NCBI GenBank assembly: GCA_002189035.1
Contig: NEEC01000019.1
Coordinates: 1,488,001-1,552,000, forward strand
Source: Utricularia gibba
Lineage: Eukaryota; Streptophyta; Magnoliopsida; Lamiales; Lentibulariaceae
Direction: 5' to 3'
DNA: 64,000 nt
Below are positions 1-37,773 of the stretch, piece after piece. A program made the position numbers and the translations under genes. Position 1 is the first letter of the stretch; each line of letters opens with the position of its first letter. The notes beneath the pieces are model-generated. The model searched no databases. It had not been told where the DNA came from and was given only the letters and a program-made list of their open reading frames with translations.

Positions 1-80
1 AATGCTGCTTCTTCGATATCAAGTTCTTTTACCGTTCCCATGTTGATGCCACCCTCTGCTATCAGCTATCAAAGAACCAG

Positions 81-746
81 AAGTTGGTGGACGCCACTCA
101 GAACCTGGGGTACGCTCGATTCCCCTGGTCATGGAACTGGTTCAGCGATCAGCTGCCTGTAGCAGATGCTTCACAGAGCCAAAAAGCAGCAGAAAGTGTT
201 GCATCAACTCCTCTACAGGCTTCCTCAGAGACAGAGTCGAGCACCCGCTTCCTTACAAGATTCTACAACCACAGGAATCTGTATTCCAAGAGTGGAGGGT
301 CTGTCACGCCGCAATCCACAAAGTCAGCAGCCCTTTTAAGGCCAACCAAAAGAAACCCGTTAGGAACCAGGAGGTTCTTCATATCAAGAGCAAGTCCTGT
401 TAGTTCAGCTGGTGACACTCAACCGAAAGATGATGACAGCCACTTGAGCTGCCCTCCGTTCTCCCGTCCTCATTACATGACGCCCACGATCTCAGCATTG
501 GCGAAAGCAAGAGGGGGTAGCAATCCGAAGGAGAGACTTCCCGGCACTGCGGACTCCGGGAGGCGGCGATTCTCGCTTCCCTTTACTCCGGACAGCAGAA
601 ACTTGAAATGGAAGAAAGGGGATTCCGGATCTCAGACAGGAAGTCAGTACCAGGAGTCTCCGAGCTCCAACAAAAGCTATGTTGCAAATTCGACGGTTTC
701 CATGCCGGCTTTTGTTGGCAGAAAGCCTTTTAACAGATTTGTATGA
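81..746 (+). CDS. IQD family protein, C-terminal exon (5' partial)
   Basis: Last exon of a gene that begins left of the window; a splice acceptor (ccag) lies just before base 81 and the frame ends in TGA at 744-746. The roughly 221 residues are Ser/Pro/Arg-rich and disordered. The recognisable part is a DUF4005-like motif, SRPHYMTPTISALAKAR (about residues 128-144), followed by a basic, RRRFSLPF-type stretch; this is the usual C-terminus of plant IQ67-domain proteins, which bind calmodulin and microtubules. The calmodulin-binding IQ motifs themselves would be in upstream exons outside the window. Family call is from the DUF4005-like motif only; the subfamily number cannot be given. Confidence 0.7.
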   Translation, partial: KLVDATQNLGYARFPWSWNWFSDQLPVADASQSQKAAESVASTPLQASSETESSTRFLTRFYNHRNLYSKSGGSVTPQSTKSAALLRPTKRNPLGTRRFFISRASPVSSAGDTQPKDDDSHLSCPPFSRPHYMTPTISALAKARGGSNPKERLPGTADSGRRRFSLPFTPDSRNLKWKKGDSGSQTGSQYQESPSSNKSYVANSTVSMPAFVGRKPFNRFV

Positions 747-967
747 ATCCTTTGTGCATGTCATGGCCATGTTTTCTCTGTTTTCTATTGAACGTGCATT
801 AAAAAAAAAAGGAGTTGACACTGAGAAAAAAAATACTTAATTTTAAAAAGAAAGACCTTAACCACATCCAAGTACCAAATTAAAATTCAATATTTCACGA
901 TCACTATAAATCGTATCGATTTTATATTTGAGGTAAATTTTATAATTGATAATTTGACACCAATATC
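747..967. other. 3' flank of IQD gene, AT-rich
   Basis: Presumed 3' UTR and intergenic sequence with A-rich runs near 800-850. No further gene seen. Its last 8 bases (960-967, ccaatatc) form the left target duplication proposed for the element that follows. Confidence 0.5.
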
Positions 968-1010
968 TAGAGGTGGACAGGGGACCGATTCAACAGGTTG
1001 CAGGTCAACA

Positions 1011-4000
1011 TGGAGCCGGGCTGGGCTGCTACCAGGAGTCGAGCTGGGCTGCCACGAGGAGTCGAGCTGGGCTGCTAAGAGGAGTCGGGCTGGGCTGCTA
1101 TGATGAGTCGGGTCGGGCTGCTACAAGGAGTCGGGCTGGGCAGCAACACTGAGCCCGGCGGGGCTGCCACGAGAAGTCCGGCTGGGCTACAACACGGAGC
1201 CGAGCTGGGCTGCCACGAGCAGTCCGGCTGGGCAGCCACAAGGAGTCGGGCTGCGCTGTCCCGAGGAGTCGGGCGGGGCTGCCACGAGAAGTCCGGCTGG
1301 GCTACAACACGGAGCTGAGCTTGGCTGCCACTACGAGTCAGGCTGGGCTGCCACGAGGAGCCGGGCTGCCACGAGGAGCCGGGCTGAGCTGTCACGAGGA
1401 GTCGGGATGGGTTGTCACGAGGATCCGGGCTGAGCTTCCACGAGGATTCGTGCTCCGTGTTGCAGCCCAGCCCGACTCATTGTGGCTGCTCAGCCCCACT
1501 CCTCGTGACAGCCTAGCCCCACTTCTCGTAGCAACCCAGCCCACTCCGTGTTATAGCCCAGCCCGGCACATCGTGACAGCCGACCCGACTCCTCATGGAA
1601 GCCCAGCCCGGCTCCGGGTTGCAGCCCAGCCCGACTCCCTGTGGCAGCCCAGCCCGGATCCGTGTTGCAGCCCAACCCGGCTCATTGTGGCTGAGCAGCC
1701 CCACTCGTCGTGACAGCTCAGCCCCACTCCTCGTAGCAGCCCAGCCTAGCTCCGTATTGTAGCCCGGCCCGGCTCATCGTGGTAGCCGACCCCGACTCCT
1801 CATGGCAGCCCATCCCAGCTCCTTGTTACAGCCCAGCCCGGTTCCGTGTTGCAGCCCAGCCCGACTCCTCGTTGCAGCCCAGACGGATCTGTGTTGCAGC
1901 CCAGCCGACTCCTCGTGGCAGCCCAGCCCCGCTCCGTGTTGCAGCCCAGCTCGACTGCTTATGGCTTCCAGCCCGACTCCTCGTGGCACCCCAGCCCGGC
2001 TCCGTGTTGCAGCGAAGCCCGACTCTGTGATGCACCAAAGCCCGGCTCCTTGTGTCTTCCAACCCGACTCCTCGTGGCAGCCCAGCCCGGCTCCGTGTTG
2101 TAGCCCAGCCCGGCTCCATGTTGTAGCCCATACCGACTCCTCGTGGCAGCCGACCCCAACTCCTCACGGCAGCCCAGCCCGACTCCTCGTGGCAGTCCAG
2201 CAAGCCTCCTTGTTGCAGCCCAGCCGGACTCCTCGTAACACCCCAGCCCGGCTCCGTGTTGCAGCCAACCCCGGCTCCATGATGCAGCAAAGCCCGGCTC
2301 CTTGTGGCTGCCAAGCAGATTCCTCGTGGCAGCCCAGCCCGGCTCCGTGTTGTAGCCCAGCCCGACTCCGTGTTGCAGACCAGCCCGAGTCCTCGTTGAC
2401 AGCCCAGCCCATCCCCATGTTGCACCCCAGCCCGACTCCTCGTGGCTGCCCAGCCCAGCTCCGTGTTGCAGCCCAGACCGACTCCTCGTCAAAGCCCATC
2501 CGGACTCCTACTAGCAGCCCAGCCCGACTCCTTGTGGCAGCCCAGCCCGACTCCTCGTGGCACCCCAACCCGGCTCCGTGTTGCAGAAAAGCCCAGCTCC
2601 ATGTGCGGCAAAGCCCGGCTCCTTGTGGCCTCTAACACGATTCCTCGTGGCAGCCCAACCCAACTCCATGTTGCAGCTCAGTCCAACTCCTCGTCGCAGC
2701 GCAGACCGACTCATAGTGGGAGTCCAGCCCGACTCCTCGTGGCAGCACAGCCCGACTCCACGAGGCAGCCCAGCCCGACTCCTCGTGAGCAGCTCAGCCC
2801 GAATCCTCGATGCAGCCCAGCCCGACTTCTTATGGCAGCCCAGTCCGACTCCTCGTGGCAGCCCATCCCGACTCCTCGTGGCAACCCAGCCCAACTCCTC
2901 GTTGGCAAACCAGCCCATATCTGCAGCCAGCCCGACTCCTCGTGGCTGCCCATCCCATCTCCGTGTTGCAGCCCAGCCCGACTCCTCGTCGCAGCTCAGC
3001 CCAGATCCGTGTTGCAGGCCCGCCCGACTCCTCGTCGCAGCCCATCCCGACTGCTATAGGCAGTCCAGCCCGACTCCTTGTGACAGCCCAGACCAACACC
3101 TAGTGGGAGTCCAGCCCGACTCTTCGTGGCAGCCAAGCCCGACTCCTCGAGGCAGCCCAGCTCGAATCCTCGTGGCAGCCCAGCCCGACTCCTCGTGGCA
3201 GTCCAGACCGACTCCTCGTGGGAAGCCAGCTCGACTCCGCGTGCCAACCCAGTTCGATTCCTCGAGGCAGTCAGTCCAGCTCCTAGTGGGAGTCCAGCCC
3301 GACTCCTCGTGGAGCCCAGTCCGACTCCTCGTGGCAGCACAGCCCGACTCCTCGTTGGCAGCTCAGCCCAGGTTTGCAGCTCAGCCCGACTCCTCGTGGC
3401 TGCCCAACCCATCTCCGTGTTGCAGCCCATCCCGACTCCTCGTGCCAGCTCAGCCCGAATCCTCGTGGCAGCCCAGCCCGACTCCTCGTGGCGGCGCAGC
3501 CCAACTCCTCGTTAGCAGCCCATCTTAGCTCCGCAGCACAGCCCGCTTCCTCGTGGCGGCGCAGCCCAACGCTTCGTTGGCAGCCCAGCCTAGCTCCGCA
3601 GCCCAGCCCGCTTCCTCGTGGCATCGGAGCCCATCTCCGTGTTGCAGCTCAGCTCGACTCCTAGTAGTAGTCCAGCCCGACTTTCTGTGGCAGCCCAGCC
3701 CGACTCCTAGTGGGTGTCCAGCCCGACTCTTTGTGACAGCCCAGCTCGAATCCTCGAGGCAGCCCAGCCGGACTCCGTTTTGTAGCCCACCGAGTTCTCG
3801 TGGCCGCACAGCCCAGCTCCGTGTTGCAGCAAAGCCCGACTCTTCGTCGCAGCCCATCCCGACTCGTATCGGTAGTCCAGCCCGATTCTTAGTGGGAGTC
3901 CAGCCCGACTCCTCGTAGCAGCCCCGCCCGACTCCTCCTGGCTTCCTAGCCAGCTCAGTGTTGCAGCTCAGCCCGACTTCTTGTGGCTTCCCACCCGACT

Positions 4001-5743
4001 CCTCGTGGCAGCCTAGCCCGACTCCTCGTGGCAGCCCAGCCTGACTCCTCGTGGCAGACTCGCCCGACTCCTCGTGGCAGCTCAGCCCGACTCCTCATGG
4101 CAGCCTAGCCCGACTCCTAGTGGGAGTCCAGCCCGACTACTCGTGGCAGCCTAACCCAACGCCTCGTGGCAGCCCAGCCCGACGCCTCGTGTCAGCCCAG
4201 CCGGACTTCTATTGACAGTACAGCCCGACTCCTTGTGGCAGCCCAGCTCGACTCCTCGTGTCAGCTCAGCCCGGCTCCGTGTTGCAGCTCAGCCCGAATC
4301 CTCTTGTCAGCCCTGCCCGAATCCTCGCGGCAGCCCAGCCCGACTCCTCGTGGCAGCACATCCCGACTCCTCGTGGCTGCCCAGCCCAGCTCCGTGTTGC
4401 AGCCCAGCCCGACTCCTCGTTGCAGCCCATCCCGACTCCTAGTGGCAGTCCATGCCAACTCCTCGTGGCAGCCCATCCTGACTCCTCGTGGCTGCCCAGC
4501 CGGACTTCTTGTGGCAGCCCAGATCGACTCCTCGTGGCAGCCTAGCCCGACTCCTAGTGGGAGTCCAGCCCGACTCCTCATGGCAGCCCAGCCCGACTCC
4601 TCGTGGCTTCCCAGCCAGCTGAGTGTTGCAGGTCAGCCCGACTTCTTGTGGCTTCCCACCCGACTCCTTGTGGCTTCCAGCCCGACTCCTCGTGGCAGCC
4701 CAGCCCGACTCTCCCAGCCCGAGGCCAGCCCAGCCCGACTTCTTGTGGCTTCCCACCCGACTCCCTTCCCTCCTCGTGGCAGCCCAGCCCGACTCCTCGT
4801 GGCTCCCAGCCAGCTCAGTGTTGCAGCTCAGCCCGACTTCTTGTGGCTTCCCACCCGACTCCTTGTGGCTTCCAGCCCGACTCCTCGTGGCAGCCCAGCC
4901 CGATCCTAGTGGCAGCCCAGCCCGACTCCTCGTGGCTTCCCAGCCAGCTCAGTGTTGCAGTCAGCCCGACTTCTTGTGGCTTCCCACCCGACTCCTTGTG
5001 GCTTCCAGCCCGACTCCTCGTGGCAGCCCAGCCCGACTCCTCGTGGCTTCCCAGCCAGCTCAGTGTTGCAGCTCAGCCCGACTTCTTGTGGCTTCCCACC
5101 CGACTCCTTGTGGCTTCCAGCCCGACTCCTCGTGGCAGCCCAGCCTGACTCCTCGTGGCAGCCCAGCCCGACTCCTAGTGGCAGCCCAGCCCGACTCCTC
5201 GTGGCTTCCCAGCCAGCTCAGTGTTGCAGTCAGCCCGACTTCTTGTGGCTTCCCACCCGACTCCTTGTGGCTTCCAGCCCGACTCCTCGTGGCAGCCCAG
5301 CCCGACTCCTAGTGGCAGCCCAGCCCAACTCCTCGTGGCTTCCCAGTCAGCTCAGTGTTGCAGCTCAGCCCGACTTCTTGTGGCTTCCCACCCGACTCCT
5401 TGTGGCTTCCCAGCCCGATTCCTCGTTGCAGCCCAGCCCGACTCCTCGTGACTGCCCAGCCCGACTCCTCGCGGCAGCTCATCCTGACTCCTCGTTGCAG
5501 ACCAGCCCAACTCCTTGTTGCAGCTCAGCCTGACTCTTCGTGGCAGCGCAGCCTGACTCCTGATGGAAGTCCAGCTTGAATCCTCATGGCAGCCCAGCCC
5601 GACTCCACGAGGCCCATCCGACTCCTTGCGGCTTCCCACTCGACTCCTCGTGGCAGCCTAGCCCGTCTCCGTGTTACAGCCCAGCTGGATCCGCGTTGCA
5701 GTCCAGCCCGACTTATTGTGGCTTGCCAGCCCGACTCCTCGTG
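1011..5743. repeat. GC-rich 23-bp minisatellite array
   Basis: Some 200 degenerate head-to-tail copies of a 23-bp unit, consensus on the plus strand close to GCAGCCCAGCCCGACTCCTC + GTG. Up to about 1448 the unit is in the opposite orientation (GAGTCGGGCTGGGCTGCCAC + GAG). Because 23 is not a multiple of 3, each strand yields the same 23-residue peptide cycle in all three frames, and the unit lacks stop codons, so long open frames exist on both strands. None has a conserved domain, splice context or codon bias, so no protein gene is called. Composition contrasts sharply with the AT-rich surroundings. Confidence 0.92.
4595..5440 (+). repeat. higher-order repeat (about 112 bp) inside the minisatellite
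   Basis: A block made of diverged units (CGTGGCTTCCCAGCCAGCTC, then a TTGTGGCTTCCCACC variant, then a TTGTGGCTTCCAGCC variant) recurs at about 4595, 4793, 4924, 5035, 5193 and 5328, with an earlier relative near 3928. Core spacing is about 112 bp; longer spacings (135, 158) equal 112 plus one or two 23-bp units. This indicates recent expansion by unequal exchange of multi-unit blocks at the 3' side of the array. Confidence 0.8.
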
Positions 5744-6083
5744 CGACGAGAAGTCAACATAAAAAATCGTTATGCCATAGATAAGGATCAACAAGTCATT
5801 TTACAATTTATATATACTAATACGAATTAAATTTAATTAAGAAGTTCTAGACCCAACTTAATTGTTCAAGTCATTTGATAAAAAAATGTTTTTTTATTAT
5901 AAAGTTATATTTTACGTTTAAACCATTTAATTTGTCATATTCACCCATATATATATATACTATGAGTATGCACGTGTTCCATACCCATTTTTTACGGTTA
6001 CATGTAACAGGTCTGACTTGTAACGGGTTAAGCCGACGAATATTCGAGTTGATTCGCATATGTGTCCACCTTTAATCAATATC

Positions 6084-6257: not shown

Positions 6258-7367
6258 TCATCTTCTGCGCCAGATTCCGGTCCTCTTCTTCTGCTCCAAG
6301 GGAGAAAATGACCCCCTGTCTTCATTTACCCTCGCGCTCACGATCTGCAGTGACAAGACAAGAGCGTCAGCACCAGAAATGCTTTTTGTTTCTTTTATTT
6401 TACTGCGGAGGAGTTGATCATTACACATCCGGTCGGCGAGCTTGCTGTAAAAAGAAACGAAGACGATGAGGATCGCGATTCCGGCGATGAGGCCGATCAG
6501 GAGCGCGAGATCCCTCTGCACCTCCTCCTCCCCATGCGTGCCTTCAGCCCATGTATCAGTGAACAATGAAAGGGAATTGGGAGAGAATGAGGTGATTGTG
6601 TAGAATGTTATTACCGGTGTGGGAGGTGTAGGTACGGGGGAGTAACGCGCGTAGCACTTGGCGAGGAAGATGTCGCCCCAAGAGGAGGATGCGCAGTGGC
6701 TTCTGAGCAATTGGACGGCGTCGGAGATGCAATCTTGGCACTCACCCACACTCAGGTCTTGGACGCACTGCGCGGTTCCCACTATACGCCCCACCGCCGC
6801 CACCCGGAAATACTCGCCCCCGTTCATGAGCGACGACAGAACCGCGTCCTTCCTCGTCACCAGCTCCGAATCGTCCGCCGCCGCCCCGCACCTATCGACG
6901 ATCAAAGTCTTATCCGCCATCCCCACGAACGAGGCGTTATCGTACCTGATTAGCAGAATATTCATTTCTTTATGAGATTAATAAAGGGCTATCTACAGTA
7001 CTTGTAATCTTCTGTCATACCTGACAAAGCAGCCCTCCAACTGCAGGGCTCCACCGCAGGCACCGTCGCATTCGGTGCCGAGACGGGCCACCGCGGCGGA
7101 GACGCAGTCGTGGCAACCCGAGTTGCTGAGGTCGCCCCGGCACTGGAAAAGCCCGTACGCCGGAGGGAGGGAGATATTGAAGGTATTGTAGTAGGAGAAG
7201 GAGGCGGAGCTGACCAGGGCGCCGAGCAAGGATCGCACATCCGAACCGTCAGGATATTTCTGCGGCGAGCATCCCACGTAGATGAAGGTGTCGGGAACCG
7301 CAACCGACGGCGCGTGCCGAATCAACACGAATGTGACGAAGAAGTAAACCGCAGCCGGAGACCTCAT
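6258..7367 (-). CDS. plasmodesmata-located protein (two DUF26 domains, one TM)
   Basis: Exon 1 is 7367-7021 and exon 2 starts at 6945; the join restores EGCFVR|YDNASF, the usual DUF26 junction. The protein has an N-terminal signal peptide (hydrophobic VYFFVTFVLI), two gnk2/DUF26 domains each with C-X8-C-X2-C (CRGDLSNSGCHDC and CVQDLSVGECQDC), a short linker and one membrane helix (LALLIGLIAGIAILIVFV). That order is typical of PDLP/CRRSP proteins that sit in the plasma membrane at plasmodesmata and regulate callose and cell-to-cell transport. Start chosen at MRSPAAVYFF because it begins the signal peptide; the longer upstream frame would bury it. A second intron may start at 6614 (CCG then GTAATA) but acceptor and frame do not fit cleanly, and the tail after the membrane helix is longer than usual, so the 3' end is uncertain. 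Confidence 0.78.
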
Positions 7368-8837
7368 GCTGATGAAAATGAAACCGAAGCCCCTTCCTTC
7401 AACTGGAGACTCCGATTGCGTTATAATACCGTTGTGAACTTGAACCTTACTCAATTTAATTATCCAATAATCGTATAAAATACGTCATATTTTAATCATT
7501 TATGGCGTCATATTAACAATCAAACGAGTATGTTACGGTGATTATACCACATGCGCATGTCACATGTTCAAGATCACAAATTTTGGAGACTTTTCAATCA
7601 TATAATATATTCTAATTATCAATGAAATTTCAACATAATTTATGACTAGGGTGGGTGCGATGCCCCGGAGGCACTTTTCTAGGGCTCGTGGGGGTCTCCC
7701 TCAAACTGTTGGATTTATTATCTCTAGTGACATGATGCGATATGACTCTAGACGTGCCACATCCACTGTTCAAAAACACAACATATGATTGAGATCATTT
7801 ATAAAATTAGTCATTATTGATTTCTTTATTATACACTAAAATCATTTTTTTATATATATGATGATTATTTTTCTTACACACTAAAAAAAGATGATTAATT
7901 TTTTAATAAATCCACTTTTTTGAGGTATAAACTGTTCCCAATAGAAATTGAGTTAAATTCAATAGAATCATAATTGAATTGTGTTTACATTACGATCATT
8001 CATGAAATCGATTCACATTTTGAATCATTTTTTGATCACGTTTGAAAATTTAGAATAATTTTGTTATCAAACCAAAATATTCAATTTCACGGGGATACTA
8101 CAATTTTAGAAATATAATAACATTTTATAATATTAATAAATACTAGGATAACAAACTTAAAAATTGAGTCAAAATTTTGATGAAATTTAGAAATTTTATT
8201 TTAAAAAATATAAGTGGGGCCCATCTTTTAGGATCCTTGACACCAAGAGACCGCCTTTAGCTTTATTCTTCCTCATCCATGAGATTCTATTATTCTCCAA
8301 AATGGAAAAATTAAAATGGATTATAATAATTTAAAAGTATCCTGAAAAATGATAATAAAAAATAAAAAATAATGCCAAAAAGTATAAAAAGATTAAAGGG
8401 CATGGATGGTAAATATCACCCACTTTGCATATGCGAAAGTTGGATGGGGAACGCTGGTGTTGATATAAAGGAAAGGCATCTTCTTCCTTTGGGGTGGCGA
8501 GCTTTAGCGAGAGGGACAACCAGCACAAAGGTGAGGAAAATGGTTCCTTCATTAGTCCCTGTACAATGTGCATCAAAACACAACTGAAGTACTAAGGAAC
8601 GTTTCCGTTTTCGGTTTCAGTTCCGTTTTGTGACAAAATTATCCGTCTGGCTCGCCTTGCTTGCGGGTTTGTTACTTGATAAAGAAAGCATTGCTAGGGA
8701 ACTCGTAGAAGAATCAAGAGTTGTACATGAGCATTCTCGTGTCTGACCTAAATGTAATAGAAGTAGTAGTAGAAGTAGTAAGATCTTGAGAGGAGGACTC
8801 CATCTGCAGCTTATAGCACTCCTTGGTTGTATTGGTT
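7368..8837. other. intergenic, AT-rich
   Basis: Promoter side of the DUF26 gene and 3' UTR side of the UEV1 gene. Mostly AT-rich, with small patches such as ccccggaggc near 7661. No coding feature supported on either strand; open frames here (for example 8331-8587) are short and composition-driven. Confidence 0.5.
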
Positions 8838-23632: not shown

Positions 23633-25904
23633 ATGCGCACCTCGCGAAAGTCTCCTGCACCTGAAAATCTTATACCAGTCTCTCGTTTACCGATGAAACG
23701 CAAGCTCCTCACAGAGACTGCGACTACGACTACTGTGAAACAAGAAGAAGAAGTCAAATCAACCACGGGTCAATTTCTGAGTTTCACCACGAAACGCCTC
23801 CGATCGACCGTCCGTCGCCGGAGGCAGTTTCGCATTGCGCCCATCGTTCGAAATGCTGGCATCAATTCGCATGCTACGGAAGTAAGCGAAGTATCCTGCG
23901 TATCGAGTGTATCGCCGAATCCGCGAGATGATGATCGGTGTCCTCGACTCATTACGCGATCTTACTCCAGGATAAAGTGCTACGAGAACCGGTGCTGCGA
24001 TCAATCGTCGCTAGTATCGGAGAATTCGTGCCTGGAATCGCATTCTAGATCAATCCTAGAATTTTCATTGAAGCTTAAGAATGAGGATGTGAGCGAATCT
24101 GATGCGCAATCAGTAGAGCAGCTTTCGAAATCTGAAGTGTCCCATGCTCCGTCGTTCTTATCGTCGGAGACGGTCACAGGAAACGAAAGCTTGGTCGAGG
24201 TGAACGGAAATCGGATCATCGTTGAAGTTCAGAACGATTCATATCGGGAATTTAATGATTCGGATTCTGAAAATGAGAATTCACTTGGTAACGACGCGGT
24301 ATCCAGAATCGGTGAAACTGTGACGGGCGAAGATACAAGAATTCAAGGTATTGTTGGATTCAACCTTGATTTGGCTTGCTCTGAGAACTTGCCCAATGAA
24401 GGAATTTACAGTGCCGATGAGGCTGAGAATGAGAACAGCACCTTATCGTCGAAGATACCAAATCTTTCATCGGAATCATGTTTCGATAGTTCAGATTATA
24501 CGCCGTCATTTTGGAGTTATGCTTCTGGAAGTCAGTTTTCTGAAAAGTCTTCAGGAGAAGAGAGTTCTTCACCGACTTATGAAATGCTCATGCTGTTTAA
24601 AACGCAGTTCAATAGATCTAATTTCGCTTCACAAGAAAGTGAACAGCATGATTCTCTGCATATGGATGTAAGGACTCTGTTTTTGATCTCGTTAGCAGAT
24701 ATTGATCTTCTTCATAAGAAAATTATTTGCAATTCGGGAATCTAGGATCTGGGCCTAGAAGATGTAGAGGAGGAAGAACAATACAGAATGATTAGGAAAC
24801 GGGAGAGGAGGAAAAGATATGTTCACAACTACGTAGAGAAGTACAGCGCACTTGAATGCGGTAAATTCATCGTCGAACAGCGGCTGCACATGGTTCATTG
24901 GATTGTTGAGGTCACTGAAGCTAACTCTACTTCTGATTGTAGGTTTTTTCATATTGTTTCCTGATCCAACTGAAGTTTTTTTTTTTTTTTTTAATTTGTT
25001 CTTTCAGCAAGCTACCCTCCAGGAGCTTCAAAAGGAGACCATATTTTTAGGGGTCAATCTACTTGATAGATTCCTTAGCAAAGGATACTTCAAAAGTGTG
25101 AGAAATCTTCAAATCGCTGCCATTGCATGCCTCACTCTAGCAATCAGATTAGAAGAAAATCAGCCCTACAACTGGTACTAGGCATTTACGTTGGCCAAAT
25201 TTGGTGGATCATGTCACTGTTGAATGGTTAGTTTGTGTGATAAATGGCAGCGTAAGGAAACATACATTCCATGTGGGAAACACAAGATACAGCCGATGTG
25301 AGGTGGTGGCTATGGAGTGGCTGGTGCAAGAGGTTCTCAATTTCGAGTGCTTCTTACCAACCTCATACACCTTCTTATGGTAACGTACAACTTTAGAATT
25401 CATATCGCTACAGTAAATTATAAGTGGCTACGTGCAATTGGGATTGTTCATTTGTGTAACAGGTTCTATTTAAAAGCTGCTAGAGCGAATGAATCGGTTG
25501 AAAAGACCGCCCATTACTTGGCGGTTCTTACACTTCTGGGTCAGCAGCTTCTCTGCTATTGGCCTTCTACTGTTGCTGCCGGTCTTGTTATCCTTGCCTC
25601 AATTGCCATGAAACAAGATGCATCATGCAACAGGGTAACAGCGGTACGCACCATACAATATTGTGATTTCGCACATCAATTTAAGAGAAAGCACAACTTC
25701 GGAGATGAAACCGTAAATGTTTTCTAAACTTTCAAACTGGCAATACAGATTCATGCAAGACAGAAAGATGATGATCTACCTAACTGCATAAAGGTAATCA
25801 ATGATCCAGTTTATACGTCATTCTTTGCTGGTATGCTCACAATCCAAATGGCTTAACTTAAGATTGTTACACAGAGCATGGAGTGGTTGGTGAAGTACAT
25901 CTGA
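23633..25904 (+). CDS. SDS: meiotic cyclin SOLO DANCERS (SDS)
   Basis: Exons 23633-24668, 24746-24910, 25008-25174, 25251-25379, 25463-25643, 25749-25793, 25875-25904. The first exon encodes a long acidic/Ser-rich, poorly conserved part; the cyclin box follows: [80 protein letters not shown] and [20 protein letters not shown]. The end is ...[19 protein letters not shown]. These features match plant SDS, a cyclin needed for homologue pairing and DMC1-dependent recombination in meiosis. The Cys after QPYN is split across intron 3 and the Trp of FLW across intron 4, giving clean joins. No frame breaks. Part of exons 4-5 is duplicated at 29359-29700. Confidence 0.92.
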
Positions 25905-26821: not shown

Positions 26822-27593
26822 CTATTAATTAATAAAAAACATTTTTAAACATAATTAAAAATTATATATTTTTATCTTCTACACAAAAAGTCTAAACCCA
26901 AAGATTTGGAACATCTTTTTATATTAACCATGAAAAACGATAAATATTCTGATTTTTATAATAATAAGTTTTATCTTTCAATTGATGATATTAAATATGA
27001 TTATAACATTAAAACATAAAATAAATATAGCAAGTATAAAATATAACTAAGATAACCTTAAAGTGGTGTATGGTTGATAATTTTTATTATTTAAATATCT
27101 ATATATCAATAATAATATATATTTGATAAACTAGTTTAACAATACATAAGTATTATACAAAATAAATATAAAATACTTTGAGTTTAGTATTTTAAAACTC
27201 ACTTTTTTGTTGAAAAATTCAAATTTTAAATTATTTATTTTAAATATAAATAAATATTTTATTTATCTATTTTGTTGATATATTTATTGTTGATCACCTG
27301 TGCGTTGTGATATTCTTTGAAGTTCCTTTGTTTATTTTTTATGATTGTATTTGTTAATCAGAAGATTTTCATGAATGTTGGAATATGTAATTATGGTTTT
27401 TTTATTATTATTTATACTTGATAAAATCATGAATAATTAATCTTTATATAGAACTACAGCCTACTTAACACCTGATTATATTATATAATATTTTAATCAT
27501 ATCATGTTACATGGCAACATTTCCTAGTTTAGAGTAATATCTATATCTGATTACAAATCAGAATGTTTCCATATTTCAGGGCATCTGAATCCC

Positions 27594-27601
27594 TATAAAA
27601 A
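27594..27601 (+). promoter_or_regulatory. TATA box of left RING-H2 gene
   Basis: TATAAAAA, 74-81 bases upstream of the ATG at 27675. The same box is kept in the right copy, suggesting both genes can be transcribed. Confidence 0.65.
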
Positions 27602-27674
27602 GAGGGTTGTTTTCGTTAAAGTAATTCTTCACACAGACTAACAGCCTAACCCCTCTTGCCGACTTGTTTTTCCA

Positions 27675-28538
27675 ATGGATCGCCTGGCCGCTCCTTTCGT
27701 GTCTGCGCCTTTCCCGATGAATATCCATGCTCCTCCATACGTGCCACTAAGTTTGAGGGAGTTCATACTTCCACAGATTTTCGAAGCTCCTCAGGGGTTG
27801 GATCCCCTGGCCCCTCCTTCCGTGCCTGCGACTTTCCCGATGAATATCCATGCTCCTCCATACGTGCCACTAAGTTTGAGGGAGTTCATACTTCCACAGA
27901 TTTTCGAAGCTCCTTACGGGTTGGATCCCCTGGCCCCTCCTGTCGTGCCTGCTCCTTTCCCGATGAATATCCATGCTCCTCCATACGTGACATCAAGTTT
28001 CACACAGTCCGTCGTTCCACAGATTTCCGAAGCTACTTACGGGTTGAATCCCGACGCTCCACCCTTCGTGCCACGTTTCAGAGGCTTTTGGTGCTATGTG
28101 ATGTTTCCTCGTAGTGAGAGTATTTCCTCCGATGAAGAACTGGAGGTTCTGGACAAACCCATCGTTGAGGGCAATGAGGTTGGTTCGAACCAGAGGAGCA
28201 GCGAGACGGAGGACGCGGCCTTCGCGGAGGAGATCGAGGAGGATGAACCTGCGCATGACGAACATCAAGAAAGGTTACTGAGGAGGTATCAGAGGATACT
28301 AATGGAGAGCATGACACTGAAGAACAATTGGGAAATTGAAGCCATTGATGAAGAGGGGCAGTCCAACATCTGCGTCGTTTGTCAGGAGGGCCTCTGCGAC
28401 GACGACGGCGGCATGATCGGAATCCTGGACTGCCAACATGAGTTTCATTCCGCATGCATCAAAAAATGGCTGGAAGCTAAGGACAAATGCCCCCTCTGTC
28501 GCGCAAGAGTCAAGGTTTCTCTGAACCGTCGTCGTTGA
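27675..28538 (+). CDS. RING-H2 finger protein with 41-residue N-terminal repeats (left copy)
   Basis: Intronless, 287 residues. Residues 2-42, 43-83 and 84-124 are three tandem 41-residue repeats with core FPMNIHAPPYVPLSLREFIL and P.QIFEAP.GL; a fourth, broken repeat starts at 125. An acidic, Ser/Glu-rich part (150-200) and a helical stretch (HQERLLRRYQRILMES) follow. The RING-H2 domain is C233-X2-C236...C253-X-H255-X2-H258-X2-C261...C272-X2-C275 with WLEAKDKCPLC, the E2-binding Trp being W265, so E3 ubiquitin ligase activity is expected. I do not recognise the repeat region. Start MDRL is taken because it follows the TATA box by a short leader and starts the first repeat. Identical to the copy at 35502-36365. 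Confidence 0.85.
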   Translation: MDRLAAPFVSAPFPMNIHAPPYVPLSLREFILPQIFEAPQGLDPLAPPSVPATFPMNIHAPPYVPLSLREFILPQIFEAPYGLDPLAPPVVPAPFPMNIHAPPYVTSSFTQSVVPQISEATYGLNPDAPPFVPRFRGFWCYVMFPRSESISSDEELEVLDKPIVEGNEVGSNQRSSETEDAAFAEEIEEDEPAHDEHQERLLRRYQRILMESMTLKNNWEIEAIDEEGQSNICVVCQEGLCDDDGGMIGILDCQHEFHSACIKKWLEAKDKCPLCRARVKVSLNRRR

Positions 28539-28795
28539 TCACCTTGTTCATCTGAATGCCCTGTCAGCACCTTTGTATCTTGGATCCAGATTGCAATGAA
28601 TATTAGAGAATGTTCACTTTGGCATTGCATTGAATTGTTTCCTTTTTTTATTTTTCAATCCGTTATATTTTTCTCAACGCTTCGCGGCAACCAGAAGAAT
28701 CGATGGGGCCAGCTTCGGTTTCCTTTCAGTAGTATAAATTGATTTGACCGAAGGAGTAGTGAAATTAGAACAGGTGAGATATTTATCGATCAACT

Positions 28796-29358
28796 ACGGC
28801 GGCTTTGAGCGTTTCCCCGGTCTTGACTTCTCCGCGAGACGACGCTACGCAGCTATACCGCGCGTTCAAAGGTGATGCGCAACTCTTCTTCTTTAATTCT
28901 GCTATCAGGAGATTTTATTTCGTTGTTTGTGTTAGAAATTTGAATGCTGAAGGTCAATTGTGTTGTTCTAGGTTTCGGTTGCGATAAGGAGGCCGCTATC
29001 AACGTTCTTGCTCATCGGGATGCGGCGCAGCGGCAGCTGATCGAAAACGAGTACAGAATGATGTACTCTGAGGAGCTTTCGAATCACCTTGCGAAAGAAC
29101 TCCACGGCGATCTCGAGGTACGGTGATGGAAATGGAATCAGCGACTTTGAATGTGTTTTTTAATCTTGAATCGTTGGTTGAGTTTTTTTTTTTTTCGTAT
29201 TCAGACTTCAGAGAGCGTTTTTGATGTGTTGTCTGATCCGGCTTCGCGTGATGCGATCATTTTGAGGAAGAGTTTATCTGGTGAAATAATTAATCTAAAA
29301 ACTGCTACTGAATCATATATATGCTCCCGCAGTTGTGCGCAGCTTCAACTCTTGAAGC
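28796..29358 (+). pseudogene. annexin 5' fragment, start codon lost
   Basis: Matches exons 1-3 of the intact annexin at 33475-34904. The start is ACG (28796-28798) where the other copy has ATG. Exon 1 ([20 protein letters not shown]), exon 2 ([20 protein letters not shown]) and part of exon 3 ([20 protein letters not shown]) can be read, then the homology stops in annexin repeat I at LLKH and SDS-derived DNA follows. Splice borders of exon 2 are kept. Lacking a start and about three quarters of the protein, it cannot encode an annexin. Confidence 0.88.
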
Positions 29359-30155
29359 ACAACATACATTCCATGTGGGAAACACAAGATACAGCCGACA
29401 TGAGGTGGTGGCTATGGAGTGGCTGGTGCAAGAGGTTCTCAATTTCGAGTGCTTCTTACCAACCTCATACACCTTCTTATGGTAACATACAACTTTAGAA
29501 TTCATATCGCTACAGTAAATTATAAGTGGGTACGTGCAATTGGGATTGTTCATTTTTCTAACAGGTTCTATTTAAAAGCTGCTAGAGCGAATGAATCGGT
29601 TGAAAAGACCGCCCATTACTTGGCGGTTCTTACACTTCTGGGTCAGCAGCTTCTCTGCTATTGGCCTTCAACTGTTGCTGCCGGTCTTGTTATTCTTGCC
29701 TAAAAAGCAATAGCATTTCATCTTCCCACACCACTCAGGTAACAAATCGATCTAAGTACCCAATCCGGATTAAAGAAAAGCAACCGATTTTTCAAGAGAT
29801 TATAAGTAAAACTACCGTAATTAGGGCAGTGGAGGCTTCGAAGCACAGTGATTGTGATCATTGAGGTGGGAACGTTGTACCCGATGCAATGTAAGGGGCA
29901 ACCGCGTCACCGGCAGCCCACGAGACTGACCGTGCCGGTGATTAGATGGCCGCCGGCGGTGACTGGGGGATGTAGTGTACCAAAAATGACGGGTTTATCC
30001 ATCACCGAGAGACTTCGAAGTAGAAGTACGCGAACTGCAGGGGGATTCAATTTTGACTTCCTGCAATTTTTTATTGGTGAAGTGTTATTTATATTTCAAT
30101 AGCATTTAAATAAATGAAAAAAATCCACAAATAGACATATTTAATAAACTTAAAG
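29359..30155 (+). pseudogene. duplicated, internally deleted SDS tail fused to the annexin fragment
   Basis: 29359-29700 copies SDS exon 4 (from its residue HTFHVGN), intron 4 and part of exon 5; 29701-30155 copies the region downstream of SDS (26369-26821). Intron 4 acceptor differs (tttttctaacag). No cyclin box can be formed. The fusion point at 29358/29359 and the deletion point at 29700/29701 are both sharp. Confidence 0.88.
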
Positions 30156-33474: not shown

Positions 33475-34904
33475 TCAGCGATACGTCGGCCCCAAAAGTG
33501 AAAGAAGGAATGCCCTGTAATGGCTGGATGTTTCTGCGTGAACTGCATCATTTAGTGGCGTGTGATACTTCTTTTGGTACTCTGCTTTTATGTACTGCAT
33601 GTCGATCTCTGTTCTGGTCACTATGACTCTTGTGAGAGTGGATTCATCAGTTCCAATGCCCTTCATTGAGTGATGCAGCAACTGTGGAATTTGCAGGAGA
33701 AATTCAGCATCATGAGGAATATATGTAAGATGTATAACACTGAAACACCCTTCAAGCAAGTGCAGAGAGGTGCAGTTCGGTCAATACCTTTGCGAAGTAC
33801 TTGGCAGGATTCAGAGCACATTGCAAAATTGTCAATAGGGCGAACTCGAAGAGGCCTGATGTTTCCCTTTTAACTGCCTGAAGGAGACGACGTGTTTAAT
33901 GTGTGGTATATGAATCAATTCGTGGGAGATCGTAACGAGCCTACCTTTTTCAGAGAGCGGCCGTACATTGAGTGATAAGCAGAAGCCACGGCAGCCAAAC
34001 GTCCAGGACTAGACTCGGAAAATATGTGTATGAATGTTTTCTCATCGGTTCCCAGCCTCCTTTCTCCAGCTTTGTAGAGTGACTTCGCATCGTGCTCTGC
34101 TCCTGCCCTGTCCACAATTGGACCTTCAAAGCGTACTTTACTGACGTAAGCCAGAAGCAACTGCAGCATTGGTGATGCTAGGACAATCAGTGAGTGATTA
34201 TATTACGCAGCACAAGGATAACCATCAAATATGCTTTCATGTTCTGGTATCATAGCAAGACGAGAATAATGACCTTTTTCAAATCACCGGTTATTTGACA
34301 CTCAATGTCTTGTTCAAGATGAAGATGAAATCTAGTAACGTATATCTGCTTCAAGTGTTGAAGCTGCGCAGAGCTGCGGGAGCATATGACTTCAGTAGCA
34401 GTTTTTAGATTAATTATTTCACCAGATAAACTCTTCCTCAAAATGATTGCATCACGCGAGGCCGGATCAGACAACCACATCAAAATCGCTCTCTGAATAC
34501 GAAAAAAAAACTCAACCAACGATTCAAGATAAAAAAAAAAAAAACACATTCAAAGCCGCTGATTCCATTTCCATCACCGTACCTCGAGATCGCCGTGGAG
34601 TTCTTTCGCAAGGCGATTCGAAAGCTCCTCAGAGTAAATCATTCTGTACTCGTTTTCGATCAGCTGCCGCTGCGCCGCATCCCGATGAGCAAGAATGTTG
34701 ATAACGGCCTCCTTATCGCAACCGAAACCTAGAACAACACAATTGATTTTCAGCATCCAAATTTCCAACACAAACAACAAAATAAAATCTCCTGATAGCA
34801 GAATTAAAGAAGAAGAGTTCTGCGTCACCCTTGAAAGCGCGGTATAGCTGCGTAGCGTCGTCTCTAGGAGAAGTCAAGACCGGGGGAACGCTCAAAGTCG
34901 CCAT
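33475..34904 (-). CDS. annexin (D5-like), intact
   Basis: Six exons: 34904-34829, 34728-34583, 34492-34274, 34160-33945, 33877-33788, 33681-33475, all GT-AG and in phase, giving about 317 residues, the normal length. Four annexin repeats are visible: repeat I with [20 protein letters not shown], repeat II starting [20 protein letters not shown], repeat III with [20 protein letters not shown], and repeat IV with [20 protein letters not shown] and [15 protein letters not shown]. Type II calcium sites (G-X-G-T-D) look best in repeat IV; repeat I has GFGCD. Annexins bind acidic phospholipid in a calcium-dependent way; D5-type genes are expressed in pollen in Arabidopsis. It lies next to a RING gene in the right arm; the other arm holds only its broken 5' part. 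Confidence 0.93.
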
Positions 34905-35501
34905 AGTTGATCGATAGATATCTCACCTGTTCTAATTTCACAACTCCTCTAGTCAAATCAATTTATAGTACTCAAAGGAAACCGAAGCTGGGCCCCATCG
35001 TTCTTCTGGTCGGGACGCGTTCGTTAGGATGTGACGTGTAACGCGTACGATAAAAATATAATATCATGGTTTTGAATTTTCTTCTTTTTTTTTGGCGTAC
35101 GACATACAAAGGTGCCAAACCATTTGCGAAATATATATTTTATTAAAAATAAATATGTTTATAAAATTTTCAAAAAAAAACCCCCGTTCAATTTATATTC
35201 AGTTTTGCTATCCAATTCTATTCCAAGAAAATTGGAAAAGTTAAAAATACTTTACATTTTTTAAAGCCTAAAAAAATGTGACCGAAGGAGTTGTTTTAAA
35301 AAATAAATTAGGTCGCGAAGCGTTCGTAAGAATGTGACGTGTGACGAGTACGAGAAAAATATAACGGATTGAAAAATAAAAAGGAAGCAATTCAATGCGA
35401 GTGACATTCTCTAAGATTCATTGGATTCTGGATCCAAGATACAAAGGTGCTGACAGGGCATTCAGATGAACAGAAGGATTCAATTCAAGCAAATCAGGTG
35501 A
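34905..35501. other. shared intergenic space between annexin and RING-H2 genes
   Basis: Annexin promoter plus RING 3' flank, both transcribed leftward. Contains the two 45-bp direct repeats noted for the right arm. No gene. Confidence 0.5.
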
Positions 35502-36365
35502 TCAACGACGACGGTTCAGAGAAACCTTGACTCTTGCGCGACAGAGGGGGCATTTGTCCTTAGCTTCCAGCCATTTTTTGATGCATGCGGAATGAAACTC
35601 ATGTTGGCAGTCCAGGATTCCGATCATGCCGCCGTCGTCGTCGCAGAGGCCCTCCTGACAAACGACGCAGATGTTGGACTGCCCCTCTTCATCAATGGCT
35701 TCAATTTCCCAATTGTTCTTCAGTGTCATGCTCTCCATTAGTATCCTCTGATACCTCCTCAGTAACCTTTCTTGATGTTCGTCATGCGCAGGTTCATCCT
35801 CCTCGATCTCCTCCGCGAAGGCCGCGTCCTCCGTCTCGCTGCTCCTCTGGTTCGAACCAACCTCATTGCCCTCAACGATGGGTTTGTCCAGAACCTCCAG
35901 TTCTTCATCGGAGGAAATACTCTCACTACGAGGAAACATCACATAGCACCAAAAGCCTCTGAAACGTGGCACGAAGGGTGGAGCGTCGGGATTCAACCCG
36001 TAAGTAGCTTCGGAAATCTGTGGAACGACGGACTGTGTGAAACTTGATGTCACGTATGGAGGAGCATGGATATTCATCGGGAAAGGAGCAGGCACGACAG
36101 GAGGGGCCAGGGGATCCAACCCGTAAGGAGCTTCGAAAATCTGTGGAAGTATGAACTCCCTCAAACTTAGTGGCACGTATGGAGGAGCATGGATATTCAT
36201 CGGGAAAGTCGCAGGCACGGAAGGAGGGGCCAGGGGATCCAACCCCTGAGGAGCTTCGAAAATCTGTGGAAGTATGAACTCCCTCAAACTTAGTGGCACG
36301 TATGGAGGAGCATGGATATTCATCGGGAAAGGCGCAGACACGAAAGGAGCGGCCAGGCGATCCAT
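35502..36365 (-). CDS. RING-H2 finger protein with 41-residue repeats (right copy)
   Basis: The 287-residue product is identical to the left copy at 27675-28538, including three 41-residue repeats and the RING-H2 at residues 233-275. The coding DNA also appears identical, since the out-of-frame translations agree too. The TATA box is at 36431-36438 (minus strand TATAAAAA). Upstream, a frame extends further (MRVILQTT...) but starts at the transcript start region, so MDRL is kept. Either copy could be the ancestor; its association with the intact annexin suggests the right arm is the original. Confidence 0.85.
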   Translation of the reverse strand: MDRLAAPFVSAPFPMNIHAPPYVPLSLREFILPQIFEAPQGLDPLAPPSVPATFPMNIHAPPYVPLSLREFILPQIFEAPYGLDPLAPPVVPAPFPMNIHAPPYVTSSFTQSVVPQISEATYGLNPDAPPFVPRFRGFWCYVMFPRSESISSDEELEVLDKPIVEGNEVGSNQRSSETEDAAFAEEIEEDEPAHDEHQERLLRRYQRILMESMTLKNNWEIEAIDEEGQSNICVVCQEGLCDDDGGMIGILDCQHEFHSACIKKWLEAKDKCPLCRARVKVSLNRRR

Positions 36366-37773
36366 TGGAAAAACAAGTCGGCAAGAGGGGGTTAGAGTAG
36401 TCTGAAGAATTACTCTCACGAAAACAACCCTTTTTATAGGGATTCAGATGCCTCACTTCCGCTGAAATATGGAAACATTAGGATTAGTAATGAAATACGG
36501 ATATCACTGTAAACTAGTAAATGTTGCCATGTAATATAATATAATTAAAATATTATATAGTATAATCAGTTTTCATTAGTGTTAAATATAATCAGGTTTT
36601 CATTAAAATATAGATTACTTCTTCATGATTTTATTAATTATAAATAATAAAAAATAGAAAAAAATCAATAAATCTGCCAAAATTACATATTCCAACAATC
36701 ATGAAAATCTTATGATTAAAAAATACAAACATCAAACATGAATAAAGTAATTTTTTTTTAAAAAAAGAACACCACAATGCACAAGTGATCAAGTCAGTTT
36801 ATCAATAAAATAGATAAATAAATTATTTTATTTTATATTTAAAATAAATAATTAAATTTTTGAATTTTTCAACAAAAACGTTAAGTATTTTTATATTTTT
36901 TAAAATATGCATGCAATTGTTAAACTAGTTTATTAAATATATATTATTATTAATATATAGATATTTAAATAATAAAAACTATATACCAAGCAACACTTTA
37001 AGGTTATCTTAATTATAGTTCATACTTGCTATATTTATTTTATGATTTAATGTAATATTCATATTTAATATCATCAATTAAAAAATAAATTTATTATTTT
37101 AAAAATCAGAATATCTATCGTTTCTCATGATTGATACAATAAGATATCCCAAATCTTTGGGTTAGACTTTTGGTATAGAAAAGAAAAATATATAATTTTT
37201 AATTATGTTTTATTTTTTACTAATTAATATAAATTTAGAGTAATAATGTTAAATCATATTAATAAATACATACAATATATTATTGAATTATGCTATTGTT
37301 TTGATGCATTTATATGTATTTATCTTCATCTTCTCCGTTGATCCTGGAGCACGTGTCCTTCGGGACTCCTCACGTGGATCCAAGAAGAGTGATGATTGCC
37401 TTGCGCGACTGAAGATGAAAAGCGGGCACATTCCGAAAATTCTTTCCTAATGATTGTGGTGCTGACACCTAAGGCCTAATCCAAAATTCCTTCCAGAAGT
37501 CAATGCAGAGCATATTTTTTAAATGGGAAATGCAACAATCATCCTGCCTGATACGACGCTATGGATCGAATCAATCTTCTGTTTCAAATCAGCACCATTG
37601 ATTGATCTCATCCATGACTTCTAATGGACCACTGATCGCAGTGCAGTGTGTACTCTTGGGGATGATATATACCAGTCACGTTTCTCAATTTTGTTTTCAA
37701 TATTCTTACGGCTTCTCGTGAGCTACTTTCTGTCGCCTTCTCTTTTGTTTTCTGTGTGTCCGACCAGTTGGGT
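36366..37773. other. intergenic, very AT-rich, with part of the inverted arm
   Basis: RING promoter, then AT-rich DNA of the right arm to about 37262, then the alpha-galactosidase promoter. A G-box-like ACGTG occurs near 37351 and 37374 (cacgtgtcc, cacgtgg). No coding sequence. Confidence 0.45.

What the first reader, a model, noticed from the sequence alone, without database searches (positions are those of the whole stretch)
968..6075. hAT-like element whose interior is almost entirely a 23-bp minisatellite
The ends are inverted (TAGAGGTGGACA against TTAAAGGTGGACA) and the flanks carry a 7/8-matching 8-bp duplication (ccaatatc / tcaatatc). About 4.7 kb of the 5.1 kb interior is tandem repeat. 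A non-autonomous transposon acting as carrier for a satellite would explain how such GC-rich DNA landed in AT-rich sequence and could seed arrays elsewhere in the genome.
Basis: partly seen in the sequence, partly recalled or inferred. Interest (0 to 1): 0.65.

Follow-up and report, generated by a model that had tools for sequence, protein, structure and literature searches.

The report
Plant hAT mini-transposon holding a minisatellite
A short, old, non-coding DNA transposon in a small plant genome has acquired a 4.7-kb block of 23-letter tandem repeats; the block also exists at three other places without the transposon, so the transposon is a host for the repeat and not demonstrably its carrier.

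Summary
Window 968-6074 is one element: TAGAGGTGGACA...TGTCCACCTTTA, flanked by ACCAATATC/ATCAATATC (8 of 9). A profile of seven other genomic copies, built without the window, matches its right part at E=2e-45. Relatives with intact TIRs mostly have 8-bp target duplications, and one related end adjoins a hAT RNase-H fragment. It is a ~370-bp hAT MITE, split about 44 bp from one end by a 4.73-kb array of 23-bp units that switches strand once, near 1455-1461.

The carrier interpretation fails for this array. Most likely the array entered the MITE as templated filler DNA and expanded locally (six ~115-bp higher-order copies, 94-96% alike). One outside array ends in a 43-bp copy of a coding exon, which suggests template switching. 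An 8-bp GTCAACAT repeat flanking the array could instead be a target duplication; tests conflict.

In contrast, a sister subfamily of this MITE does carry a different, 56-bp minisatellite at a constant internal position at about ten dispersed sites with separate target duplications.

The parts
959..967 (.). left target-site duplication ACCAATATC of the MITE
   Evidence: 8/9 match to 6075-6083, flush with the TIRs; chance 2.5e-4
968..1011 (+). MITE end A: TIR TAGAGGTGGACA plus subterminal sequence
   Evidence: position-specific score over 76 family ends (positions 13-45: 0.0032 of shuffles as good); blastn to L078, L063, L082, L061, L068; profile match on its own 5.8 bits
1004..1011 (+). GTCAACAT, left copy of an 8-bp direct repeat flanking the array (possible nested duplication, unresolved)
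   Evidence: (null 0.005) against (colinear alignment without duplication scores 7 bits better)
1012..1460 (+). minor arm of the 23-bp array, unit GGAGTCGGGCTGGGCTGCCACGA
   Evidence: TRF 1012-1454; all 21 core matches forward
1461..5752 (-). major arm of the 23-bp array, opposite strand
   Evidence: TRF 1462-5743, 188 copies; all 164 core matches reverse
4593..5440 (+). recent higher-order amplification, six copies of a ~115-bp block at 94-96%
   Evidence: C142:1492593-1493440
5753..5760 (+). GTCAACAT, right copy, at the position native to the MITE
5751..6074 (+). MITE body and end B with TIR TGTCCACCTTTA
   Evidence: nhmmer profile 49-408 of 410, E=1.9e-45, profile built without the window; blastn 62-68% over ~275-335 bp to L062, L029, L016, L035, L015, L034, L041
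6075..6083 (.). right target-site duplication ATCAATATC

Best explanation
Window 968-6074 is a defective copy of a ~370-410-bp hAT MITE family that, about 44 bp from its end A, has acquired an array of an independent, GC-rich 23-bp dispersed minisatellite. SHOWN: the MITE frame, its family, the position of the array inside it, the single strand switch, and three other arrays without MITE ends. INFERRED: the seed of the array was copied in during repair of a break in or next to the MITE (filler DNA by template switching, as known inside Ds elements), in head-to-head orientation; the array then grew in place by unequal exchange or slippage, most recently at 4593-5440. The MITE is the host of the array, not its distributor.
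For: The MITE profile covers positions 49-408 of 410 on the right side, and the 44-bp left piece supplies the start, so the array interrupts an almost complete element. Relatives without the array provide empty sites inside the element (L029, L062, L034, L041). The close unit is found at only four loci: the window, C4:530k, C4:929k and C413:4.35M, and the other three have no TIRs or MITE profile match. The unit consensus is shared across loci (GGAGYCGGGCTGGGCTGCCAYGA and near variants), with no sign that the window is the source. The unit has no similarity to the MITE sequence (0.36 of shuffled units as good). Template switching: the C4:929k array abuts a 43-bp, 86% copy (first 32 bp 94%) of a start-codon region that lies ~375 bp downstream of the C4:530k array. 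Precedent for filler DNA inside hAT elements: PMC3260210.
Against: No ortholog or empty allele was available, so the order 'MITE first, array later' is not shown. The GTCAACAT repeat could mean that the array entered as a mobile unit. The template-switch evidence is from a different locus. Whether the element could still move with the array was not tested.
Confidence: 0.68

Rival explanations
1. The array was itself a mobile unit (fold-back-like: opposite-strand arms made of tandem repeats) that inserted into the MITE and made an 8-bp duplication, GTCAACAT.
For: An exact 8-bp repeat lies flush at both array edges, 0.005 in a flank-matched null; the right copy sits where the MITE natively has GTCAACAT; the arms are on opposite strands. 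Drosophila Tetris is a fold-back element with tandem-repeat TIRs (PMC4079207).
Against: The colinear alignment without duplication scores 178.5 against 171.1 bits, because the duplication reading needs a ~14-bp deletion in the left piece. The three other arrays show no duplication beyond chance. The arms are very unequal (0.45 and 4.3 kb), the short arm is not a mirror copy of any part of the long one beyond background, and the array ends share no obvious TIR.
Confidence: 0.17
2. One reading: the MITE with the array transposes as one unit and seeds arrays elsewhere.
For: The MITE frame has intact TIRs and an 8/9 duplication; a sister subfamily moves with a 56-bp array.
Against: Only one MITE copy holds this array; the three other arrays have no MITE ends; end A is separated from the rest of its subterminal region by 4.7 kb.
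Confidence: 0.1
3. The TIR pair and duplication are coincidental, and the array is a plain minisatellite in intergenic DNA.
For: Minisatellites of this unit occur without transposon ends at three loci.
Against: Both ends match a specific family in the correct polarity, with a 320-bp profile match at E=1.9e-45.
Confidence: 0.02

Closest known systems
Ds2 and Ds-like hAT elements of maize with filler DNA (PMC3260210)
   Same: Non-autonomous hAT ends around unrelated DNA acquired from elsewhere in the genome; 8-bp target duplications.
   Different: Here the filler is a GC-rich tandem array, about 13 times the size of the MITE, only 44 bp from one end.
Tetris/DAIBAM of Drosophila virilis (PMC4079207)
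   Same: A non-autonomous DNA transposon related to a MITE, with internal tandem repeats; the same repeat also occurs as arrays without the transposon.
   Different: Tetris repeats are part of its TIRs, occur in several copies and are thought to be its own amplified sequence; the 23-bp unit here shows no similarity to the MITE and is in one copy only. The 56-bp sister subfamily is the closer parallel.
Fold-back elements (FB, Galileo, plant fold-back elements)
   Same: Opposite-strand arms built of short tandem repeats.
   Different: Very unequal arms, no shared array ends, no consistent duplication.
Dispersed plant minisatellites (e.g. Beta vulgaris, PMC2820488)
   Same: Short-period arrays dispersed on chromosomes.
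   Different: GC-rich here, only four loci found, one of them within a MITE.

Membership tests
hAT superfamily (non-autonomous) | short TIRs of hAT type shared by a repeat family | tested here: met
   TAGAGGTGGACA/TAAAGGTGGACA; the longer TIR pattern has 85 genome matches against 10 for the reversed control
hAT superfamily (non-autonomous) | 8-bp target-site duplication | tested here: inconclusive
   In the family mostly 8 bp (best length 8 in 15, 9 in 2, 10 in 1 of the clearest copies). The window copy itself reads best as 9 bp flush, 8/9, like L034, L035, L041 and L081.
hAT superfamily (non-autonomous) | related element with hAT transposase | tested here: met
   L031 (C213:2917122): family end B (E=1.1e-5) and, ~1.4-1.8 kb inside, PF14372 hAT-like RNase-H (E=1.2e-6, above cut-off); a relic, other end not found
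MITE | short non-coding element in many copies with shared ends | tested here: met
   dozens of copies, most 300-770 bp; the window copy is 5.1 kb only because of the array
Fold-back transposon | long terminal inverted repeats that are copies of each other | tested here: not met
   Arms 0.45 and 4.3 kb; the best alignment of the short arm lies within the background of array-to-array similarity
Fold-back transposon | target duplication around the repeat unit | tested here: inconclusive
   GTCAACAT: in favour, against; none beyond chance at the other three arrays
Satellite-carrying transposon (Tetris type) | array present in several copies of the same transposon at different sites | tested here: not met
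   23-bp unit: 1 of 4 arrays in a MITE. Met for the 56-bp unit of the sister subfamily.

The most novel reading that the evidence does not exclude
The 23-bp array is an independent mobile minisatellite (fold-back-like), which inserted into the MITE with an 8-bp duplication and reached the three other loci by the same route.
Probability: 0.12. Interest if true: 0.6.

Novelty: new variant of a known kind. Interest (0 to 1): 0.36.

Why it matters
How a short tandem repeat reaches unlinked sites is rarely visible. Here one hAT MITE family offers a matched comparison in one small genome: a 56-bp minisatellite that travels with the element and keeps its position, and a 23-bp minisatellite that sits in one element but spreads without it. 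This separates 'transposon as vehicle' from 'transposon as landing site'. It is mainly of interest to repeat and genome-evolution specialists; no function is implied.

Tried and rejected
Mutator membership (9-bp duplications) was considered because the window and four other copies read best at 9 bp; set aside because most family copies have 8-bp duplications and a hAT RNase-H fragment adjoins a related end. Origin of the unit from the MITE's own sequence: no similarity beyond shuffles. PacBio-type fold-back artefact as the cause of the strand switch: the short arm is not a mirror copy of the long arm, so unlikely. Common flanks among the four arrays: no convincing one with the window (only weak AT-rich matches); the 43-bp exon piece links two of the others. 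One literature search failed on a term that was too short and was repeated without a useful result.

Full report
OBSERVATION. The window lies at C142:1488001-1552000 of a 100.09-Mb, 516-contig genome. Genes around the arrays look plant-like; size and contig number resemble the Utricularia gibba assembly (NEEC01000001-NEEC01000518, quoted in PMC6982007). That identification is an inference and nothing below depends on it. The element is 968-6074: TAGAGGTGGACA at 968-979, TGTCCACCTTTA at 6063-6074, and flush flanks ACCAATATC / ATCAATATC (8 of 9). Two random points match this well with probability 2.5e-4. Tandem Repeats Finder finds 23-bp arrays at 1012-1454 and 1462-5743, with consensus units that are reverse complements of each other. 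All 21 core matches up to 1427 are forward and all 164 from 1463 on are reverse.

THE FRAME IS A hAT MITE. TAGAGGTGGACA occurs 21 times in the genome (reversed control 10); the longer pattern TAGAGGTGGACAYGGATAYG with up to 3 mismatches occurs 85 times against 10. Fetched copies are mostly 300-770 bp with matching TIRs and, in the clearest cases, exact 8-bp target duplications (L047, L063, L068, L078, L082). The family has two different ends; window 968 onward is end A and the window's right side is end B. A profile built from seven other copies matches window 5751-6072 from model position 49 to 408 of 410 (E=1.9e-45). An end-B copy, L031, has a hAT-like RNase-H domain about 1.4-1.8 kb inside (PF14372, E=1.2e-6) and matches the MITE end over ~230 bp (E=1.1e-5), so the family belongs with hAT. 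A minority of copies, the window included, read best as 9-bp duplications; this is recorded as unexplained.

WHERE THE ARRAY SITS. With the array taken out, the two flanks align as one MITE to its relatives; the interruption is about 44 bp from end A. Two readings of the edges compete. GTCAACAT stands flush on both sides (1004-1011, 5753-5760), as a target duplication would; a flank-matched null gives this 0.005 of the time. But an alignment without duplication scores 178.5 bits against 171.1, since the duplication reading needs a ~14-bp deletion in the left piece, and the common array variant CAACACGGAGCC could itself supply CAACATGGAGCC (sequence). I leave this open.

THE ARRAY ELSEWHERE. 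Searches of several designs found the unit at only four loci: the window, C4:530.0k (L013, ~0.46 kb), C4:929k (L012, ~0.87 kb) and C413:4.352M (L014, ~1.57 kb); one isolated 17-base match elsewhere (C2:4938293) was not followed up. The last three lack the TIRs, the MITE profile and any convincing paired TIR + duplication in ~0.9-kb flanks. Units of all loci share a consensus, and nothing marks the window as the source; the larger arrays are mostly nearest to themselves. The window array contains six ~115-bp higher-order copies at 94-96%, so it has been reshaped in place recently. L012 ends in a 43-bp copy (86%; first 32 bp 94%) of the start of a coding exon that lies ~375 bp downstream of the L013 array, ~400 kb away; that exon, thiolase-like by my reading, has no second full match in the genome. 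This is what template switching during repair synthesis would leave. L014 also has a short forward unit fragment before its reverse array.

MECHANISM. Most likely a seed of the dispersed minisatellite was copied into the MITE as filler DNA during break repair and then expanded (inferred). Filler DNA inside hAT elements is well documented for Ds (PMC3260210), where the terminal ~200 bp are needed for full transposition; by analogy, displacing all but 44 bp of one end should hamper this copy. The carrier model fails on its own stated criterion for this array.

THE CONTROL THAT WORKS. Five of 40 fetched MITE copies carry an internal 56-57-bp tandem array. A genome search found the unit at about 19 loci. 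In L047, L050, L052, L060, L081, L088, L090, L091 and L097 the array lies between the same TIRs with duplications of different sequence at each site, matching at 7 or 8 of 8 bp (L081: 9 of 9); L085 has 6 of 8. L089, L092, L094 and L096 have partial MITE matches; L084, L086, L087, L093 and L095 show none, and two of these hold the longest arrays (544 and 604 bp). In the profile matches the left breakpoint is at model position 129-143, so this array was probably acquired once and moved with the element. Random positions scored at most -0.33 on the same test, against 1.66 to 8.7 for the ten carriers.

VERDICT. Real, correctly seen, partly misread. A new variant of a known kind (hAT element with acquired tandem-repeat filler); modest interest, raised by the matched 56-bp subfamily.

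Noticed in passing
L047, L050, L052, L060, L081, L085, L088, L090, L091, L097 (and fragments L089, L092, L094, L096): A sister subfamily of this hAT MITE carries a 56-57-bp minisatellite of variable copy number at a constant internal position, with different target duplications at each site: a transposon-carried minisatellite. Some of the longest arrays (L084, L087) have no MITE ends.
   Followed up: partly
L012:3211-3253 against L013:2850-2891: The C4:929k array abuts a 43-bp copy of a coding-exon start (thiolase-like by eye) whose only full genomic match lies downstream of the C4:530k array; looks like template switching.
   Followed up: partly
window 26823-29359 and 34347-37229: Large inverted repeat (88-91% identity) containing mirrored 123-bp tandem arrays (27676-28052, 35988-36364); a 341-bp direct duplication (25259-25599 / 29361-29701) is 98% identical.
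   Followed up: no
L034, L035, L041, L081 and window 959-967/6075-6083: A minority of copies in this hAT family read best as 9-bp flush duplications (L030: 10 bp) instead of 8.
   Followed up: partly
L031:323-2117: Relic of a hAT element with family end B and a hAT-like RNase-H domain; possible former source of transposase for the MITEs.
   Followed up: partly
window 1-746 and 6258-7454: The element lies between the 3' end of a + strand reading frame (weak DUF4005, below cut-off) and a - strand gene with two Stress-antifung (PF01657) domains.
   Followed up: partly
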